Assembly (NCBI RefSeq): GCF_022049065.2
Contig: NZ_CP095744.1
Coordinates: forward strand, 1,116,001 to 1,180,000
Length of the DNA: 64,000 nt
Direction: 5' to 3'
From: Niallia sp. Man26
GTDB taxonomy: Bacteria; Bacillota; Bacilli; Bacillales; Cytobacillaceae
In this document: positions 41,675 through 53,381 of the stretch, piece by piece
Position numbering within the stretch: position 1 is the stretch's first letter
Layout: every line of letters begins with the position of its first letter
Notes under the pieces: model-generated
Database searches by the model: none
What the model saw: the letters and a program-made list of their open reading frames with translations, nothing else
Told to the model about the DNA's origin: nothing
Position numbers and translations under genes: made by a program

Positions 41675-42757
41675 TTGGAAACAATTTCTTTGAAACTAGA
41701 ATTATTAAATCCTACTAATGCTAAAAAAGAGATGTACAAAGAAATGACAAATATCAACACATCTTTTGCGAACTGGTTATTGGAATATCAAGGTCTAAAG
41801 GGTGCAACATCGAAAGTTTATAAGTTGTTTTCTGATGGGAAATTCCCCTCGGCTATTGTGAACCAATCCATTCGAGAGGTTAAATCTAAGAAAAATAATC
41901 AAAAAGCGAAGGTTTTTCGCCGTTTTTGGTGTGGGTTCAACAACCAAAATTTGAAAGTAGAGAAAGAAAACAACCTCTATAAAGTTTCATTTCCTACTCT
42001 TGAGAAACGTGTTGGTGTACCAGTTGTAATAGAAACATACCAAAAACATTGGTTAGATAAAGTTTTGGAAGGGAAAGCAAAACAAGGAGCAGCGGAGTTG
42101 TATGAGAAAAAGGGGCGTTGGTATGTTTCCATTTCTATCTCTTTTGAACCAAAAATACCGAAATTTGAATCTATTAAACCTCCAATAATGGGCATTGATG
42201 TAGGGTTAAACTATCTTGCTGTTGCTATGGTTGGAACAACTTCGTTGTTTTTTAAAGGAAATGAGGCAGCATTTATTCGCAGGAAATATGCTTCGAAAAG
42301 ACGAGTCCTTGGACAGAATAAAAAGTTGGATGCTATTCGCAAATCCAAAAACAAAGAATCGCAATGGATGAAGGAATTAAATCATGTCATAAGCCGAAAA
42401 ATCGTAAACTTCGCATTAGAGAACGGTGTTCGTCTAATACGAATGGAAGATTTAACAGGCATTAGAAAAACAGCAAAATCAAAGAAAGAAGCAGGTCGAA
42501 ATCTACATTCTTGGGCACAATATCAACTTCAAACTTTCATTGAATACAAAGCAAAGGTGGAAGGCATGGAAGTTCAATATGTAAATCCTTATAACACATC
42601 GCAGATGTGTAAATGTGGTCATATTGATAAAAATAATAGAAACCGTCATCTATTTCAGTGCGAAAAATGTGGATATAAAAGCCATGCAGATGTGAATGCT
42701 GGACTTAATATATCAAAATGTGTAAGTGGTATTTCTAAAAAGAAAAAAGCATCCTAA
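41675..42757 (+). CDS. tnpB: TnpB, RNA-guided nuclease of an IS605-type element
   Basis: 360 residues from TTG with GGTGGTG upstream. The RuvC catalytic residues are all present: Asp175 (GIDVGLNY), Glu258 (RMEDLTGI) and Asp339 (SHADVNAGLN). The zinc ribbon has Cys312, Cys314, Cys329 and Cys332. A helix-turn-helix/REC part fills the N-terminal half. TnpB proteins cut DNA next to a TAM, guided by RNA from the element's right end, and so help the element persist. The enzyme looks intact. Confidence 0.93.
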   Translation: METISLKLELLNPTNAKKEMYKEMTNINTSFANWLLEYQGLKGATSKVYKLFSDGKFPSAIVNQSIREVKSKKNNQKAKVFRRFWCGFNNQNLKVEKENNLYKVSFPTLEKRVGVPVVIETYQKHWLDKVLEGKAKQGAAELYEKKGRWYVSISISFEPKIPKFESIKPPIMGIDVGLNYLAVAMVGTTSLFFKGNEAAFIRRKYASKRRVLGQNKKLDAIRKSKNKESQWMKELNHVISRKIVNFALENGVRLIRMEDLTGIRKTAKSKKEAGRNLHSWAQYQLQTFIEYKAKVEGMEVQYVNPYNTSQMCKCGHIDKNNRNRHLFQCEKCGYKSHADVNAGLNISKCVSGISKKKKAS

Positions 42758-43722: not shown

Positions 43723-44907
43723 TTGAGTAATAAAAAAATCCCGGTAACGGTATTAAGCGGATATCTTGGTTCAGGTAAGACAACTCTGCTTAATCATATT
43801 TTATCTAATAGAGAAAATCTTAAAGTTGCTGTTATCGTAAATGATATGAGTGAAATTAATGTTGATGCATCATTGGTGAAGCAGGGAGGATTTTCGAGAA
43901 CAGACGAGAAGCTGGTAGAAATGCAAAATGGCTGTATATGCTGCACACTTCGCGAGGATTTAATAATAGAAGTGGAAAAACTCGCCCAAAACGGTGATAT
44001 TGATTATATTATAATTGAATCCAGCGGTATTAGTGAGCCAATCCCGGTTGCGCAAACATTTACATATGTGGATGAGAGTATGGGGATTGATCTAACTGAA
44101 TTTTGTAGACTGGACACTATGGTAACGGTAGTAGATGCTAATCGGTTTTGGCATGATTATGGTTCAGGGGAAAGCTTGCTGGATCGTAAACAAGCTGTTG
44201 ATGAACTGGATGTTCGAGAAGTAGCTGATCTGCTAATAGATCAAATAGAATTTGCCGACGTTATCTTACTGAACAAAATGGATTTAATTTCAAAAGAAAA
44301 TCAAGAAAAATTAACAGCAATCATTAAACAATTTAACCCTGAAGCGAAAATATACAGAAGTGAATTTTCACAAGTTCCACTCGATAAAGTGTTAAATACA
44401 GGCCTTTTTGATTTTGAAGCTGCTAGCCAAAGTGCAGGTTGGATAAAAGAACTTAATGAGGAACATATTCCTGAAACAGAAGAATATGGAATATCTTCTT
44501 TTGTATATTGGAGAAAGAAGCCGTTTCATCCAGTAAGACTAATGGCTTGGATTGAAACATGGCCAGCAGAAGTGGTACGTGCTAAAGGGTTTATATGGCT
44601 AGCGACTAGGAATAATGATTCTGGGCTGTTATCACAAGCAGGCACATCTTTATCGATTCAAGGAGCTGGGAAATGGGTAGCTACATACCCGGATACGGAA
44701 ATTAAGCAAATTCTAGAGGAAGATGCTGTGCTGCAAAAAAGATGGGATCCTGTGCATGGTGACCGAATGACAGAGTTAGTTTTGATTGGCATTGGAATGG
44801 ATCAAAAGCAACTAGAAAATGATTTAGATAAGTGCCTTCTTACAGAGATAGAAATGACTAAAGATTGGACCAAATTTTTAGACCCATTTCCATCATTTAA
44901 CGTCTAA
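43723..44907 (+). CDS. Zinc-regulated COG0523 GTPase metallochaperone (YciC/ZagA-like)
   Basis: 394 residues. P-loop GYLGSGKTT (13-21), the metal motif GCICC (70-74), Walker B-like [11 protein letters not shown] near 97, and NKMD near 184 define a CobW/COG0523 G3E GTPase; the C-terminal CobW_C domain (about 260-390) has [14 protein letters not shown]. Members under Zur control (YciC/ZagA) deliver zinc to client enzymes during starvation. A Zur box lies 53 nt upstream. It heads an operon with rpmGC. Confidence 0.92.
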
Positions 44908-44930: not shown

Positions 44931-45080
44931 ATGAGAGTGAATATTACATTGGCATGTACAGAAACAGGAGACAGAAACTATATTACTACAAAAAACAAAC
45001 GAAATAATCCAGATAGAATAGAATTAATGAAATATTGCCCACGTTTAAAAAGACGAACTTTGCATAGAGAAACAAAATAA
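44931..45080 (+). CDS. rpmG: Zinc-independent ribosomal protein L33 paralogue
   Basis: 49 residues, too short for most ORF lists. [24 protein letters not shown] and [18 protein letters not shown] are typical L33. The two CxxC pairs of zinc-binding L33 are missing (only Cys9 and Cys37 remain), so this is the C- type used when zinc is scarce. AGGAGG is 7 nt before ATG and it lies 23 nt after the Zur-controlled chaperone gene. Confidence 0.93.
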
Positions 45081-45105: not shown

Positions 45106-45128
45106 TAAATCGTAATAGTTTCGATTTA
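45106..45128 (+). promoter_or_regulatory. Zur box 2 (before rpsN)
   Basis: TAAATCGTAATAGTTTCGAT plus TTA, dyad with one or two mismatches, 20 nt before the rpsN start and overlapping its likely promoter. Confidence 0.85.
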
Positions 45129-45147: not shown

Positions 45148-45417
45148 GTGGCAAAAAAATCTAAAGTAGTAAAAGAGAAAAAACGGCAAGCTATGGTGGA
45201 AAAGTATACAGCTATTCGGATCGAATTAAAGGAAAAAGGTGATTATGAAGGACTTAGAAAACTTCCGAGAGATTCCTCTCCAACACGCCTAAAAAACAGA
45301 TGTGAAGTTACTGGCAGACCTAGAGGGTACTTAAGAAAATTTAAAATGTCCCGCATTGCCTTCAGAGAGTATGCTCATAAAGGGCAAATTCCAGGTGTTA
45401 AGAAAGCAAGTTGGTAA
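45148..45417 (+). CDS. rpsN2: Zinc-independent ribosomal protein S14 paralogue
   Basis: 89 residues, the long C- form of S14 (zinc-binding S14 has 61). It contains [20 protein letters not shown] and [16 protein letters not shown], with one Cys instead of the CxxC...CxxC ribbon. Under Zur control such paralogues replace the zinc protein and spare zinc. GTG start with AAAGGAGG about 10 nt upstream. Confidence 0.95.
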
Positions 45418-45435: not shown

Positions 45436-45470
45436 AATGCCCCCCTATTTTTGGAGTAGGGGGGCATTTA
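45436..45470. terminator. Strong bidirectional terminator
   Basis: AATGCCCCCCTA pairs with TAGGGGGGCATT between rpsN2 and the convergent FeoB-like gene. Confidence 0.9.
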
Positions 45471-45486
45471 TCATGTTGTACAGTTT

Positions 45487-47151
45487 TTATATAAAGTGAA
45501 TGATATGATTACCTGCTACTAAGCATAATCCAAGTAAAATCGCTGTTAGTGATTGTTGACCTATAAGTTTAAAAGCTTGTATAAATCCTAACTCTTTCCA
45601 TATTGTAGCCAAGGTTACGACACATGATGTCAATGTAGAGGCTAAAAACACTAATAAGAATAATTGGAAATTAGTAAGGATAGAAAACAGCGCGCCATTT
45701 CCTTCATTTAAAATAAGGATTCCATCTTTTCTTATTATTGAAAAAGCCAAAGTTGCTGCGCCTTCTACTGGCAAATGGAAAAGTTGTAATAAAGGATGAA
45801 ACAGTAAAGCAATAAACGAAATGATATTCATATATTGCAACAGACTAGCAGTAATGCAAATAAGTAGAAAAATAGGCATTGCCTGCTTAAAAAATTGCGC
45901 TAAGTCACTACTTACTTGAAGCTTTATCGTTTTTAATTTTGGTTTTTGAATAAAAGCTTTTCTAGTAATAGTTGAAGGAGGGAATGATTGCTTTTTAAAC
46001 CACAGATAATTGTGAATGATACTCCCTGTAAGTAACAGGAAAATATAGGGAAAGAAAAGCCACACAGCATGGGCTGAATTAAAAATCGATAAAGTTGCAC
46101 CAATTTGATAACTGCATGCAGACCCAAAAGAGATAAACGAGATACATTGGGACCTGTTGCAAGTATGACAACCTCTGCTTTGAAAGACTGCAACAACATT
46201 ACAGCCAAACCCAGTGATGATCGGTAGTATATCTCTGCCAGTTAAACCAATTTTATATAACATTGGTTCCAATGTATCTACTATGCGATCCTTTATGCCG
46301 GATTCTTCTGTCATTGCTTTACTGCAGCTAATCATCAACACAACTGGAAAGGCCCAAATAAAGGAATAAATTCCGAGTGTTAATAGTCCATAGTTCCCTA
46401 CGAAAATTTCTTTAATAATGCTGGGAGCACTAGTAAAGAATAGTGTAAGTTGACTGAGTATATACTTTTCAATCAACGGCTGTAACAAGTTAGAAAACTG
46501 GTATGCGACGATAACAGGAAACAAAAACATGGCTACTAAACTTAATAAAGCAACGAAGCTTTTGCCAAAGTAACTTTTTTCAAAAAACAGAGTAGGAGGG
46601 TCTACTTTAGAAATCGGTAAGTTTATAAGTTCCTTTAGTTGTGATTGATTTATCGTATCATTTTCCTTTAAACACTCTTTAAATAAGTTAACAGTATTCT
46701 TTTCTACTTTTCGGGTATCTACAATAAAGATAGGCAGCTTTTTTCTTGTTATTTGTTTAAGAAGCAAACTCTTACCTTCAGGAGACATTTTATCTGAAAA
46801 GGTAACAAATAAAAGAATCCTTTTGGTTGCTTTTTCAATATAAGGAAACAGCTTTTCCAATTCCTCTGCAAAATGTGTACCTCTTACTACAAGAATAATA
46901 GTAGAAGCACTATATATATCTTCATAAAGTTTTGTCTGTATTAGTGAATTTGCGTTATTAATGCCGGGTGTATCAATTAAATTTCCATTCACAAAATAAG
47001 TACTTTCATTATGGATAGTTGATCCTTTCACATTTATTTCTTTACCTATCGACCTACCAGCTAACTTAGTAAATAAGGTTGATTTTCCAGAAGATTCAAA
47101 GCCTAAAATTAATGAATTTAGGCTTTGGGTTTGAATTTTCTCCTCTAACAC
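45487..47151 (-). CDS. FeoB-like GTPase-permease under zinc (Zur) control
   Basis: 554 residues. N-terminal G domain: G1 GFESSGKST (17-25), G3 DTPG near 60; the expected NKxD is degenerate (TFSDK near 117). About eight membrane helices follow with two Gate/nucleoside-recognition regions; ITGFGCNVVAVFQSRGC near 313 matches the FeoB core GFGCNVPA. It is shorter than classical FeoB (about 660). It is the second gene after a flavoprotein, behind two Zur boxes, so the cargo is more likely zinc than iron. No feoA is nearby. It overlaps the upstream gene by 7 nt. Confidence 0.82.
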   Translation of the reverse strand: MLEEKIQTQSLNSLILGFESSGKSTLFTKLAGRSIGKEINVKGSTIHNESTYFVNGNLIDTPGINNANSLIQTKLYEDIYSASTIILVVRGTHFAEELEKLFPYIEKATKRILLFVTFSDKMSPEGKSLLLKQITRKKLPIFIVDTRKVEKNTVNLFKECLKENDTINQSQLKELINLPISKVDPPTLFFEKSYFGKSFVALLSLVAMFLFPVIVAYQFSNLLQPLIEKYILSQLTLFFTSAPSIIKEIFVGNYGLLTLGIYSFIWAFPVVLMISCSKAMTEESGIKDRIVDTLEPMLYKIGLTGRDILPIITGFGCNVVAVFQSRGCHTCNRSQCISFISFGSACSYQIGATLSIFNSAHAVWLFFPYIFLLLTGSIIHNYLWFKKQSFPPSTITRKAFIQKPKLKTIKLQVSSDLAQFFKQAMPIFLLICITASLLQYMNIISFIALLFHPLLQLFHLPVEGAATLAFSIIRKDGILILNEGNGALFSILTNFQLFLLVFLASTLTSCVVTLATIWKELGFIQAFKLIGQQSLTAILLGLCLVAGNHIIHFI

Positions 47152-48245
47152 TCACAATTCACCTCGCAACAAGATAAATCGTCTAAAAACAGATTGTTTT
47201 TTCGGTATAAATCAAAAATTTCGGTTGGATATTGGAAATTAGTACGATCAAGTATTTCTTTAACAATCACAGCAAATCTTTGGCGGAATTTATATATATA
47301 GCAGAAAATAACCTGCTGATGCCTAACATTTGGTCCTGCTAAAAATACCCCTGCAGTAATAGTAGATTCATCTTTATCTGTTAATTTAGGCGACTGTTCA
47401 TTTTCCCACTCAAAAAGAGAATAAATTTGTTTAACACCAGGAATAAAACCAGCAGCTAAAATTGGTCGGGTTTTTGAAACATGAGTAGTTCCATCAGACA
47501 AATATAATACATAGTCATCATCTCTTTTAGAGATTTTTAAAACCTCTACATCAAGCAGTTCTAACCGACCTGTCTCATCAGCAATTTCTAATCTTTCCTT
47601 TGTAAAAGGAGACAAGGATTTACTCGGATCAGCCTCAACATTGTCCCATGGAGCACTTCTAGAAATGACTGTAACATTCTTTTCATTTGCTGTAAGATGA
47701 TAGGCAGCATCTATTCCGCTTTCGTATCCGCCTATAACGGTGAATTCATCTCCTTGCAAGTTATCCCACGATTTAACTAAACTGTTATGAAGAGCAAGCT
47801 CCGCACCCTCAAAGGGTTTTAAATTAGGTGTTTGATATTCACCTGTTGCCCAAACTAAAAAAGGTGCTTCTATCATTTGCTTGTCTGTATATAACAGAAA
47901 TTTATTATTATCTTTAACTACTTTATCAACATAAGCCTTCTTTATTGGCAATTTATAGTGGTGAGCTAATAATTGAAGATAATCTGCATATTCATTGCCT
48001 GTTAAGTGTTCTTTCCCGAAAGTAAACGCTGGAGAAGTTTCAGGAGTCAGGGCATTCAAATCTAACATCCCGAATCCATGCCCTGTAAAGGAAGGGGTAA
48101 TCAGCTTCATTTCCTTTGGCCATTTTCGAAAACTGGCACCAATTTCTTCCTTTTCTAAAATCACAAAGTCCTCAAAGTTCATTTTCTTTAATAAGATACC
48201 TAAGCCAATTCCAGATGGCCCTGCACCTACAATAACTAATTTCAT
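47145..48245 (-). CDS. FAD-dependent oxidoreductase with cysteine-rich tail, Zur-controlled
   Basis: 366 residues, CzcO/flavin-monooxygenase-like. FAD Rossmann motif GAGPSGIG (7-14), a second NAD(P)H loop VIGGYESGID near 170, and LAAGFIPG / GVFLAGPNVRH near the end. The last residues, SCCEVNCEC, form a tight thiol cluster that could bind zinc. It is first in an operon with the FeoB-like permease and follows two Zur boxes. A reductase that frees or senses zinc is plausible but not shown. The start ATG is 48245. Confidence 0.82.
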   Translation of the reverse strand: MKLVIVGAGPSGIGLGILLKKMNFEDFVILEKEEIGASFRKWPKEMKLITPSFTGHGFGMLDLNALTPETSPAFTFGKEHLTGNEYADYLQLLAHHYKLPIKKAYVDKVVKDNNKFLLYTDKQMIEAPFLVWATGEYQTPNLKPFEGAELALHNSLVKSWDNLQGDEFTVIGGYESGIDAAYHLTANEKNVTVISRSAPWDNVEADPSKSLSPFTKERLEIADETGRLELLDVEVLKISKRDDDYVLYLSDGTTHVSKTRPILAAGFIPGVKQIYSLFEWENEQSPKLTDKDESTITAGVFLAGPNVRHQQVIFCYIYKFRQRFAVIVKEILDRTNFQYPTEIFDLYRKNNLFLDDLSCCEVNCEC

Positions 48246-48311
48246 TGAAAAGTCATCTCCTGATTAAATATAAGAGAGCAAATTTAATATAGATTGCCTC
48301 GAATGTTATGT

Positions 48312-48332
48312 AAATAGTAATGATTACGATTT
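48312..48332 (-). promoter_or_regulatory. Zur box 3
   Basis: AAATAGTAATGATTACGATT plus T; its reverse complement is the Zur consensus with one mismatch. It lies 67 nt before the flavoprotein gene. Confidence 0.85.
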
Positions 48333-48346
48333 GTATTATAAATTAA

Positions 48347-48373
48347 TATAAATCGTAATCATTACGTTTTATA
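48347..48373 (-). promoter_or_regulatory. Zur box 4
   Basis: TATAAATCGTAATCATTACG followed by TTTTATA, a 27-bp dyad centred on C60. Tandem boxes 38 nt apart suggest tight repression. Confidence 0.9.
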
Positions 48374-51429: not shown

Positions 51430-52182
51430 TCAGTCCTTCTGTTTTTGCGTACTCAAGTGCTTCTCTTTTAGTCTGTAACTATCACCTTTCAAGTTAAAGA
51501 TACGAGAGTGATGCAAGAGGCGATCTAACATCGCTGTTGCAATTATCGGATCTCCAACCATTTCTCCCCATTCTCCAAAGCCTTTATTGGATGTAAGGAT
51601 GATAGAGCCACGTTCATATCTTCTTGATATAACTTGGAACAAATAGTGTACACTTTGCGTATCAAGGTTCAGATAACCAATTTCGTCGATAATTAAAACC
51701 GAAGGTTTAATAAAGGAAACTATTTTCTTCTCCAGTTTTTCCTGCTGTTTTGCTTTTCTTAGCTGGGATACTAGCTCGCTCATTGTAATAAAATGGGTTT
51801 TCATTCCTTTTGAGATTGCCTCCATCCCAATAGCTACTGCAAGATGTGTCTTCCCAATACCAGGAGGACCTAAAAAAATTAAATTTTCTTTGTTATCGAG
51901 GAAGGAAAGATTCATTAATTCTCTAATTCTTCTTTCATCCATGTCCACTTGGGCTGTAAAATCAAATTGATCTATCGTTTTTCGGTAAGGAAACCTCGCA
52001 AACTTCAGCAGGGTTTTCTTCATTCTTTCCTGTTTTTCAGTGATTTCTAGCTCTAGAAGGCTGAATAAAAACTGTGAATATGGTACATTATCTTTAGACG
52101 CTTGTTCGGCCAGTTCGGACCATCGGTCCGCAATAACGGGCAAGTTTAATTTTTGGCTATACTCCTTTATCTCTTTTTTCAT
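51430..52182 (-). CDS. istB: IstB, IS21 helper ATPase
   Basis: 250 residues, AAA+ ATPase of the DnaC/IstB type. Walker A GPPGIGKTH near 105, Walker B VLIIDEIGYLNLD near 163, sensor region IILTSNKGFGEWGE near 195. It recruits target DNA for the IstA transposase. Its ATG overlaps the end of istA (4 nt), the usual coupling. Confidence 0.95.
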   Translation of the reverse strand: MKKEIKEYSQKLNLPVIADRWSELAEQASKDNVPYSQFLFSLLELEITEKQERMKKTLLKFARFPYRKTIDQFDFTAQVDMDERRIRELMNLSFLDNKENLIFLGPPGIGKTHLAVAIGMEAISKGMKTHFITMSELVSQLRKAKQQEKLEKKIVSFIKPSVLIIDEIGYLNLDTQSVHYLFQVISRRYERGSIILTSNKGFGEWGEMVGDPIIATAMLDRLLHHSRIFNLKGDSYRLKEKHLSTQKQKD

Positions 52183-53381
52183 GATGATTCACCCCTAGTG
52201 AATTCATCATAGACGGATAAGGGGCGTGTATCTACTTCCAAGGAAACAGGCTGTGGGGCGCCAACCACGACAGTTTGTTTCCTTGTTATTTTTTCGGAGA
52301 AGGGAATAACTTTTTTCCGTCGCTGTAGCTTACTAATTTCTTCTCCCTGATAAAATATCCTAATTAAACCCTCCAGAGATTCTTTTATCAATATTTCTTT
52401 TCCAGCGTACTTAGAGGATAGAATCCAACTTTCTCCCTTATAGGAGAAGCTTCCGTCCCAATGAACTTTCCTAAAGGAAATATAACTTGTATCATATTCT
52501 TTCTTCTCATTTATTGGATGAAGCTTTTCCTCTGTCCATTTTTCTTGTGGAGAATAGCCGGTTGTTTCATTTCTCTTTCGGTTACCAACAGTATCCAGCC
52601 ATCTCATTAAAAGTTGGTTCAATTCTTCCACACTATTAAACTTTGTCCCCACATAAAAATGATTCATAATGTACTGAATAGCCCTTTCCACTTTTCCTTT
52701 TGTTTGGGCTCTGTATGGGCGGCAGGCTTTTGGAATAAATCCATAGTAAGAGGCGAATTCTGCAAATCTTTTATTCCATTTAATGACCCCTTGATCACGT
52801 CCATCTGTGACAGTCCTCATATTATCAAACAAGATAGTAGAAGGTATCCCACCCAGATATTTAAAACTGTTAATTAGACCTTGCATGACATGTTCCTGAT
52901 CCTGGGATAAAGTAAAAAGAGCGTACTTCATTCGCGAATAGCCTAAGATGGCAACAAACATGGAAAGCTTCCTTTTTTCTCCGTTCAAAATGACTTCTCC
53001 GACCTCTTTCCAATCGACCTGCATCTGTTCACCCGGAAGGGTTTCATAACGGACAGTATATTTCTTTTTTGCTTGTTCTCGATATGGCTGCATATAATCC
53101 TTTAATATCGTTTTGCCACCTTGATATCCAAGCAACTTGATCTCGAGAAGCAGTTTCTCTGCATTAAATACCCGATCCTCTAGCATCCTCCTATTGATAT
53201 AATCCTTAAATTCATCAAGTTTACTGCTTCTATTTCTTTTCCTAGCAGTGGGGATGGTTTCGGACATTATGTATTTTTTAACCGTCTTGCGGTCCATCTT
53301 CAGCTCATTGGCGATATCAGTAATACTCATTCCTCTTTGGTACATTTCTTTAATCATAAAAAATTCCCCTCTTGTCTTCAC
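52179..53381 (-). CDS. istA: IstA, IS21 DDE transposase
   Basis: 400 residues. N-terminal helix-turn-helix (MSITDIANELKMDRKTVKKYI), then an rve-type DDE core: the first Asp in MQVDWKEVGEV near 120, the second in TILFDNMRTV near 180, and the Glu in AQTKGKVERAIQYI near 230. A C-terminal Mu-type beta domain follows. Together with IstB it moves IS21 by a copy-and-paste-like route through joined ends. Confidence 0.95.
   Translation of the reverse strand: MKTRGEFFMIKEMYQRGMSITDIANELKMDRKTVKKYIMSETIPTARKRNRSSKLDEFKDYINRRMLEDRVFNAEKLLLEIKLLGYQGGKTILKDYMQPYREQAKKKYTVRYETLPGEQMQVDWKEVGEVILNGEKRKLSMFVAILGYSRMKYALFTLSQDQEHVMQGLINSFKYLGGIPSTILFDNMRTVTDGRDQGVIKWNKRFAEFASYYGFIPKACRPYRAQTKGKVERAIQYIMNHFYVGTKFNSVEELNQLLMRWLDTVGNRKRNETTGYSPQEKWTEEKLHPINEKKEYDTSYISFRKVHWDGSFSYKGESWILSSKYAGKEILIKESLEGLIRIFYQGEEISKLQRRKKVIPFSEKITRKQTVVVGAPQPVSLEVDTRPLSVYDEFTRGESS

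What the first reader, a model, noticed from the sequence alone, without database searches (positions are those of the whole stretch)
45487..48373. Zur-controlled FeoB-like permease coupled to a flavoprotein with a cysteine tail
Two tandem Zur boxes precede a two-gene operon: a CzcO-like FAD oxidoreductase ending in SCCEVNCEC, and a 554-residue FeoB-type GTPase-permease. FeoB normally imports ferrous iron with FeoA, but here the control signal is zinc, FeoA is absent, and the locus faces zinc-sparing genes. A flavin-assisted zinc (or other metal) uptake system would be new. Cargo is inference.
Basis: partly seen in the sequence, partly recalled or inferred. Interest (0 to 1): 0.7.

Follow-up and report, generated by a model that had tools for sequence, protein, structure and literature searches.

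The report
Zinc-starvation permease with flavoprotein partner
Many bacteria appear to switch on, when short of zinc, an undescribed two-gene system made of a cysteine-rich relative of the bacterial iron channel and a flavin enzyme with a cysteine tail, which is most likely a new kind of zinc importer.

Summary
The window holds an overlapping two-gene operon, a Pyr_redox_3 flavoprotein ending CCEVNCEC and a 554-aa FeoB-like permease, behind two Zur boxes and facing zinc-sparing genes. Flavoprotein in the stretch: 76 of 81 family loci, 0 of 20 canonical FeoB loci. FeoA: 0 of 81, 20 of 20. Zur box within 3.2 kb upstream: 53 of 58 Bacillota loci, 0 of 20; Fur box 2 of 58, 16 of 20. In 250 class genomes both genes occur in the same 17. 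The family is one clade apart from FeoB, lacks its helical domain, has a CNT-like membrane fold and four near-invariant core cysteines absent from FeoB. Staphylococcus-type members lack the GTPase but keep the cysteines and the flavoprotein. A Klebsiella plasmid carries the pair in a zinc-gene island. Best reading: a zinc importer whose thiols are kept reduced, or whose zinc is received, by the flavoprotein. Cargo and flavin role are inferred. Ten open-access searches found no description.

The parts
48353..48367 (.). Zur box 1 (TCGTAATCATTACGT), 1 mismatch
48315..48329 (.). Zur box 2 (TAGTAATGATTACGA), 1 mismatch
47145..48245 (-). FAD/NAD(P)H-type flavoprotein (Pyr_redox_3), 366 aa; closest solved structure 3d1c of S. 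aureus Mu50
47148..47171 (-). C-terminal tail CCEVNCEC (residues 359-366); C360, C364, C366 in 38 of 39 aligned relatives, C359 in 33 of 39; residues 361-366 below pLDDT 50
45487..47151 (-). FeoB-like permease, 554 aa, overlaps the flavoprotein gene by 7 bases
46657..47112 (-). GTPase domain (about residues 14-165): GFESSGKST, KGST, DTPG, TFSD; no FeoB-type helical domain after it
45496..46545 (-). [not shown]
46096..46212 (-). Gate motif GFGCNVVAVFQSRGCHTCNRSQCISFISFGSACSYQIGA (residues 314-352) with C317, C328, C331, C336, C346
43650..43664 (.). Zur box (TCGTAATTATTGCGA), 1 mismatch, before the facing zinc operon
43723..44907 (+). COG0523 GTPase, nearest ZigA (543.8 bits, cut-off 600)
44931..45080 (+). 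Ribosomal protein L33 (RpmG) with few cysteines (by eye)
45110..45124 (.). Weak Zur-like site (2 mismatches) before S14; not significant alone
45148..45417 (+). Ribosomal protein S14 (RpsN), below the cut-off of the zinc-type (type Z) model, 74.8 vs 77 bits

Best explanation
The operon encodes a zinc-starvation transport unit. When zinc falls, Zur leaves the two boxes and the two overlapping genes are expressed (shown: the boxes and their conservation; inferred: binding and expression). The permease is a CNT-fold carrier of the FeoB superfamily (shown by model and sequence) that takes Zn(II) into the cell (inferred from regulation and company) along a thiolate path made of C317, C346 and C510, shared with FeoB, and C328, C331, C336 and C432, which FeoB lacks (cysteines shown, ligand role inferred). 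The GTPase domain gates or regulates and can be lost (shown: absent in Staphylococcus-type members). The flavoprotein uses NAD(P)H and FAD to keep these cysteines reduced and/or takes the incoming zinc on its flexible CxxxCxC tail and passes it to the COG0523 chaperones often encoded nearby (inferred).
For: Zur box of at most 2 mismatches within 3.2 kb upstream in 53 of 58 Bacillota family loci (38 of 58 within 1.6 kb); reversed pattern 1 of 58, Fur 2 of 58, PerR 7 of 58; canonical FeoB controls Zur 0 of 20, Fur 16 of 20, PerR 5 of 20, reversed 1 of 20. Any of six zinc-marker families in the stretch: 67 of 81 versus 0 of 20; COG0523 59 of 81 versus 0 of 20; FeoA 0 of 81 versus 20 of 20; flavoprotein 76 of 81 versus 0 of 20. 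Both genes in the same 17 of 250 class genomes (hypergeometric 1e-26, relatedness ignored); same 3 of 13 in the genus. Genes overlapping or at most 30 bases apart in 70 of 73 stretches where both ORFs were called (first possible starts were used, so overlaps may be overstated; L002 repeats L029). Family-specific cysteines C328, C336, C432 in 100% and C331 in 95% of 81 rows versus 0% of 20 FeoBs, all kept in the six GTPase-less members. Tail cysteines in 38 of 39. On a Klebsiella plasmid a gamma-type Zur box starts 33 bases before the flavoprotein, with FolE2, DksA, two COG0523 genes, HisI and two repressors around. Genomes G001 and G003 hold both this permease and canonical FeoA-FeoB, so it is no stand-in for iron uptake there.
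Against: No transport, binding or expression data. Derepression under zinc starvation also fits import of a substitute metal or a non-metal function. Two MAGs (L091, L095) have the permease but no flavoprotein was found in the genome. Cysteine geometry was not measured (no model coordinates at hand). 14 of 81 loci show no zinc marker in the stretch, some on short contigs. None of the 23 non-Bacillota loci has a Bacillus-type box; a gamma-type box of at most 2 mismatches was seen in 2 of the 23. The window's own genome has no FeoA or canonical FeoB, so in this one strain an iron role is not excluded by coexistence.
Confidence: 0.62

Rival explanations
1. The permease imports a different metal (Mn, Fe or Co) that zinc-sparing substitutes need when zinc is short; FolE2-type enzymes can use other metals (recalled).
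For: FolE2 in 20 of 81 and a dCTP-deaminase-like gene in 20 of 81 stretches; FeoB ancestry.
Against: The added cysteines favour a thiophilic ion over Mn; canonical FeoA-FeoB coexists in G001 and G003; 61 of 81 stretches have no FolE2.
Confidence: 0.15
2. The flavoprotein is a monooxygenase that makes or modifies a small zinc-binding molecule, and the CNT-like permease carries it or its zinc complex.
Against: Among the neighbour clusters looked at no biosynthetic gene recurs beside zinc-sparing enzymes; a tail of cysteines suits metal or thiol chemistry; the next fold matches are YpdA/Bdr disulfide reductases.
Confidence: 0.12
3. An ordinary ferrous-iron FeoB that drifted under Zur control.
For: FeoB-superfamily sequence; some records name it ferrous iron transporter B; the window's genome lacks FeoA and canonical FeoB.
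Against: FeoA 0 of 81, Fur boxes 2 of 58, separate clade, altered gate and G4 motif, missing helical domain.
Confidence: 0.05
4. Export or redistribution inside the cell rather than uptake.
Against: Zur boxes imply expression when zinc is short, the sign expected of uptake; ZnuA-type genes in 13 of 81 stretches and one beside the S. epidermidis pair.
Confidence: 0.06

Closest known systems
FeoB ferrous iron transporter (TIGR00437, PF02421, PF07670)
   Same: N-terminal G domain, Gate repeats, equivalents of C317, C346 and C510, order of domains
   Different: No helical domain after the G domain, G4 TFxD for NxxD, gate GCNVVAV...CSYQIGA with four extra cysteines, no FeoA, Zur instead of Fur, flavoprotein partner, own clade
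Concentrative nucleoside transporters (CNTnw)
   Different: 10% identity; cysteine-rich core; nucleoside transport not tested
3d1c, putative flavin-containing monooxygenase of S. aureus Mu50
   Same: Full-length homologue of the flavoprotein with the tail SCCEVSCTC, TM 0.90
   Different: No function was found for it; papers naming 3D1C were seen in a listing only
YpdA/Bdr bacillithiol disulfide reductase (TIGR04018)
   Same: Same flavoprotein superfamily, next-best fold matches
   Different: 80.7 bits against a cut-off of 339.9; no such tail (recalled)
Zur-regulated COG0523, FolE2, DksA-type clusters (Haas 2009, PMC2770081, passages seen)
   Same: Same regulon and company; they flag a Zur-regulated cluster on the Klebsiella plasmid pLVPK
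   Different: Their held text has no occurrence of FeoB, flavoprotein or permease
ZnuABC/AdcABC and ZIP (ZupT) zinc importers
   Same: Zinc uptake under zinc shortage (here inferred)
   Different: Unrelated folds and energy sources (recalled)

Membership tests
FeoB | Scores over the curated cut-offs of TIGR00437 and PF02421 | tested here: not met
   70.7 vs 315.65 bits; 24.3 vs 27 bits
FeoB | Gate domains in the membrane part | tested here: met
   PF07670, 63.1 vs 29.6 bits, 2 stretches
FeoB | Helical domain after the G domain | tested here: not met
   Gap opposite this region in the alignment of 81 family and 20 FeoB rows; that this region is the GDI domain is recalled
FeoB | GCNVP and CSARLPV gate signatures | tested here: not met
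   GCNVVAV and CSYQIGA
FeoB | FeoA neighbour | tested here: not met
   0 of 81 vs 20 of 20 controls (the model was seeded from the control genomes' FeoA)
FeoB | Fur control | tested here: not met
   2 of 58 Bacillota loci vs 16 of 20 controls within 3.2 kb
FeoB | Transports Fe(II) | not testable with these tools
   needs an uptake assay
Zur regulon | Zur box before the operon, conserved in relatives | tested here: met
   (Bacillota; weaker evidence elsewhere)
Zur regulon | Zinc- and Zur-dependent expression | not testable with these tools
   needs an expression assay
CNT fold | Membrane domain superposes on CNT | tested here: met
   [not shown]
YpdA/Bdr | Score over TIGR04018 cut-off | tested here: not met
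   80.7 vs 339.9 bits
ArsO flavin monooxygenase | Score over NF040505 cut-off | tested here: not met
   50.2 vs 425 bits
3d1c-type flavoprotein | Full-length homology including the cysteine tail | tested here: met
   E 2.4e-82, residues 2-366
Zinc importer | Zinc uptake shown | not testable with these tools
   inferred only

The most novel reading that the evidence does not exclude
A new class of zinc importer, found across phyla, in which a CNT-fold permease with seven conserved cysteines works with a dedicated flavoenzyme: NAD(P)H-driven thiol chemistry loads, releases or protects the zinc in transit, and the GTPase is an optional regulator that staphylococci have discarded.
Probability: 0.35. 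Interest if true: 0.88.

Novelty: new variant of a known kind. Interest (0 to 1): 0.76.

Why it matters
Zinc acquisition in bacteria is usually told as an ABC importer plus ZIP-type carriers (recalled). A further, widespread system under the zinc regulator, seen here in Bacillus and Paenibacillus relatives, Staphylococcus-type genomes, Verrucomicrobiota, Chloroflexota and Enterobacterales, and in 499 Klebsiella plasmid records, would fill a gap in zinc physiology and in how bacteria withstand zinc withholding. It would correct database entries that call these proteins iron transporters or nucleoside recognition proteins, give a role to a crystal structure released in 2008 as a putative monooxygenase, and raise a testable question: how a flavin enzyme takes part in moving a metal that has no redox chemistry.

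Tried and rejected
Canonical FeoB under chance Zur sites: rejected. Gamma-type boxes and palindromes in the 23 non-Bacillota loci: only Erwinia L080 (1 mismatch) and Tatumella L107 (2 mismatches) gave a gamma-type Zur box; the other 21 gave none of at most 2 mismatches. Foldseek on the whole permease model listed in its 50 rows mainly GTPases; the CNT match came from the VIA second look.

Limits. The genome scan kept the best 80 of 122 relatives and used exact motifs, so it favours near relatives and missed the GTPase-less forms, which one search found. L094 was dropped from the tree: 80 of 81 family rows and 20 FeoBs from the window's relatives; the kit warned of long branches meeting and odd letter make-up. 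FeoA: 20 of 20 is partly circular (model seeded from those genomes); 0 of 81 is the informative side, and covers only the fetched stretches (up to 6 kb a side, less on short contigs). The p-values ignore relatedness. The 3.2 kb box count may include boxes of neighbouring zinc genes; in random 300-base pieces of these loci a box of at most 2 mismatches was found in 3.4% (the pieces include the real boxes). Family Bacillota loci have mean GC 0.44, controls 0.38. All 16 have the flavoprotein next door and a box of at most 2 mismatches somewhere in the stretch; it lies close before the flavoprotein in nine (L179, L180, L182, L184-L187, L192, L193) and inside the called start region in L183; in L181 it is over 3 kb away and does not count. 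In some searches only the top candidates of each genome were scored.

Literature: ten searches listed no paper describing a Zur-linked FeoB-like permease with a flavoprotein. Seen as passages: PMC7029138, PMC13192273, PMC2770081, PMC8000910; PMC6336718 searched without a match; all others as listings.
Full report
What is there. On the minus strand a 366-aa flavoprotein gene (47145-48245) overlaps by 7 bases a 554-aa permease gene (45487-47151). The flavoprotein matches Pyr_redox_3 (E 1.8e-95); the permease matches Gate (PF07670) and MMR_HSR1 over cut-off, FeoB_N and TIGR00437 under it. Two one-mismatch Zur boxes lie 70 to 122 bases before the flavoprotein start. In the whole genome eight places match that well: three in this locus; four at an L31 gene, in a second L33-S14-COG0523 operon, before a ZinT gene and before an ORF that looks like a zinc lipoprotein; and one with no evident zinc gene. 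Facing the pair are a COG0523 GTPase nearest ZigA, L33 and S14, behind another such box. The genome has no FeoA hit and no Gate hit with the frame length of a canonical FeoB. It has four Fur-family proteins; one of 140 aa (L127) reads like Zur from memory of the B. subtilis protein.

Not one locus but a family. A protein search gave 535 relatives at E 1e-10 or better among 7995 candidates scored. A scan of named genomes gave 122 relatives, of which the best 80 were kept, from Bacillota, Verrucomicrobiota, Chloroflexota, Pseudomonadota and others. With the window this makes 81 loci. A flavoprotein relative lies in the stretch in 76 of 81. In the 73 stretches where both ORFs were called (of 83 given to the script, which included L002 and L003; L002 is the same contig as L029), 68 have the flavoprotein first and 5 the permease first, and in 70 of 73 they overlap or lie within 30 bases. 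Of the 5 loci without it, two genomes have it elsewhere (L061: near COG0523, FolE2 and Zur boxes; L084: on another contig, near COG0523 pieces), one has two fragments (L052), and two MAGs have none found (L091, L095). In 250 genomes drawn from the class, the permease (E 1e-40) and the flavoprotein (E 1e-60) occur in the same 17. Within the genus the same 3 of 13 have both, so the cassette is patchy and may move; insertion-sequence genes stand on both sides of the locus in the window.

Controls. Twenty canonical FeoB loci from the window's relatives were fetched. FeoA: 20 of 20 there, 0 of 81 in the family. Flavoprotein: 0 of 20. COG0523, S14, dCTP-deaminase-like, FolE2, Fur-family and ZnuA-type genes: 0 of 20 each, against 59, 29, 20, 20, 18 and 13 of 81; any of the six in 67 of 81. 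Zur box of at most two mismatches within 3.2 kb upstream: 53 of 58 Bacillota family loci and 0 of 20 controls. Fur box: 2 of 58 and 16 of 20. PerR box: 7 of 58 and 5 of 20. Reversed Zur pattern: 1 of 58 and 1 of 20. The 23 non-Bacillota loci: none of these.

A natural experiment. Six of the 17 class genomes, all of one genus code (g67), have permeases of 444-460 aa without a GTPase motif, yet with all seven cysteines and the flavoprotein next door; in five of six a Zur box of 0 or 1 mismatch lies at the flavoprotein start. A named Staphylococcus epidermidis record shows the same: a zinc-binding ABC component diverging from flavoprotein, GTPase-less permease and a COG0523-type gene, with a one-mismatch Zur box starting 49 bases before the flavoprotein. 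So the GTPase can be lost while the cysteines and the flavoprotein stay.

The partner. The flavoprotein's tail CxxxCxC is in 38 of 39 aligned relatives (the first cysteine of the CC pair in 33 of 39; L093's called ORF ends before the tail), and C315 is invariant. Residues 361-366 are the least sure part of the model. The best structural match is 3d1c of S. aureus Mu50, with the same kind of tail; next come YpdA/Bdr disulfide reductases. A C-terminal cysteine pair that carries a thiophilic metal recalls mercuric reductase (recalled, not tested). Zinc is not redox active, so the flavin more likely acts on thiols than on the metal.

Spread on plasmids. 530 of 72,556 plasmid records carry a relative, 499 of them Klebsiella. 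In the one record opened, pSGH10, the pair lies among FolE2, DksA, two COG0523 genes, HisI and two repressor genes that match the Fur-family model built here weakly (33 and 35 bits), and a gamma-type Zur box (GTTATGTTATAAC) starts 33 bases before the flavoprotein. Haas and co-workers flagged a Zur-regulated cluster on the Klebsiella virulence plasmid pLVPK; their held text lacks the words FeoB, flavoprotein and permease (PMC2770081, passages). That it is the same island is likely but was not checked. This is a second, different regulator motif that points to zinc.

Judgement. That this is a Zur-linked, conserved, flavoprotein-coupled branch of the FeoB superfamily is close to certain on sequence evidence (about 0.97, for Bacillota). 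That it imports zinc is the best reading (about 0.65). That the flavoprotein keeps thiols reduced or relays zinc is a reasoned guess (about 0.45). It works like a metal importer; it fails most tested features of FeoB proper and should not be filed as FeoB. Ten open-access searches listed no description, which does not exclude subscription papers or regulon databases.

Noticed in passing
L179-L184, L196: Permeases of the family without the GTPase domain (444-462 aa as called) in Staphylococcus-type genomes, with the conserved cysteines kept.
   Followed up: yes
L195 (NZ_CP025081.1 76157-89761): A zinc-gene island on a Klebsiella plasmid that includes the pair; 499 Klebsiella plasmid records have a relative.
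   Followed up: partly
window 41675-42757 and 51430-53381: A TnpB/IS605-type gene and an IS21-type pair stand on either side of the zinc locus, in keeping with its patchy occurrence in the genus.
   Followed up: no
L111 1314-3015 (G000:C2, near 154,900): A second L33-S14-small protein-COG0523 operon with two Zur-type boxes in the same genome.
   Followed up: no
L109 1558-1926, L111 1868-2233, L090 2983-3342: A small protein family of about 120 aa without a Pfam match recurs in zinc operons (7 loci; the two ORFs in this genome look similar by eye).
   Followed up: no
L029 2640-4577, L075 684-2577: A permease and a His-rich DUF1980 protein recur near these loci (9 and 5 loci); perhaps another zinc-linked pair. 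A similar-looking permease (by eye) lies near the putative Zur gene in L127.
   Followed up: no
L030 9999-11174, L104 9726-10868: A second, different Pyr_redox_3-type flavoprotein sits in 3 of the zinc clusters.
   Followed up: no
L033 8638-9063, L090 3397-3837: A NifU-like scaffold gene in 4 of the zinc clusters.
   Followed up: no
L188 5697-7366: A copy of the permease broken into two open pieces beside a flavoprotein gene with an open frame.
   Followed up: no
L110 1501-1515: A one-mismatch Zur box with no evident zinc gene beside it.
   Followed up: no
window 45438-45470: A GC-rich inverted repeat between S14 and the permease gene, probably a shared terminator of the two facing operons (read by eye).
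   Followed up: no
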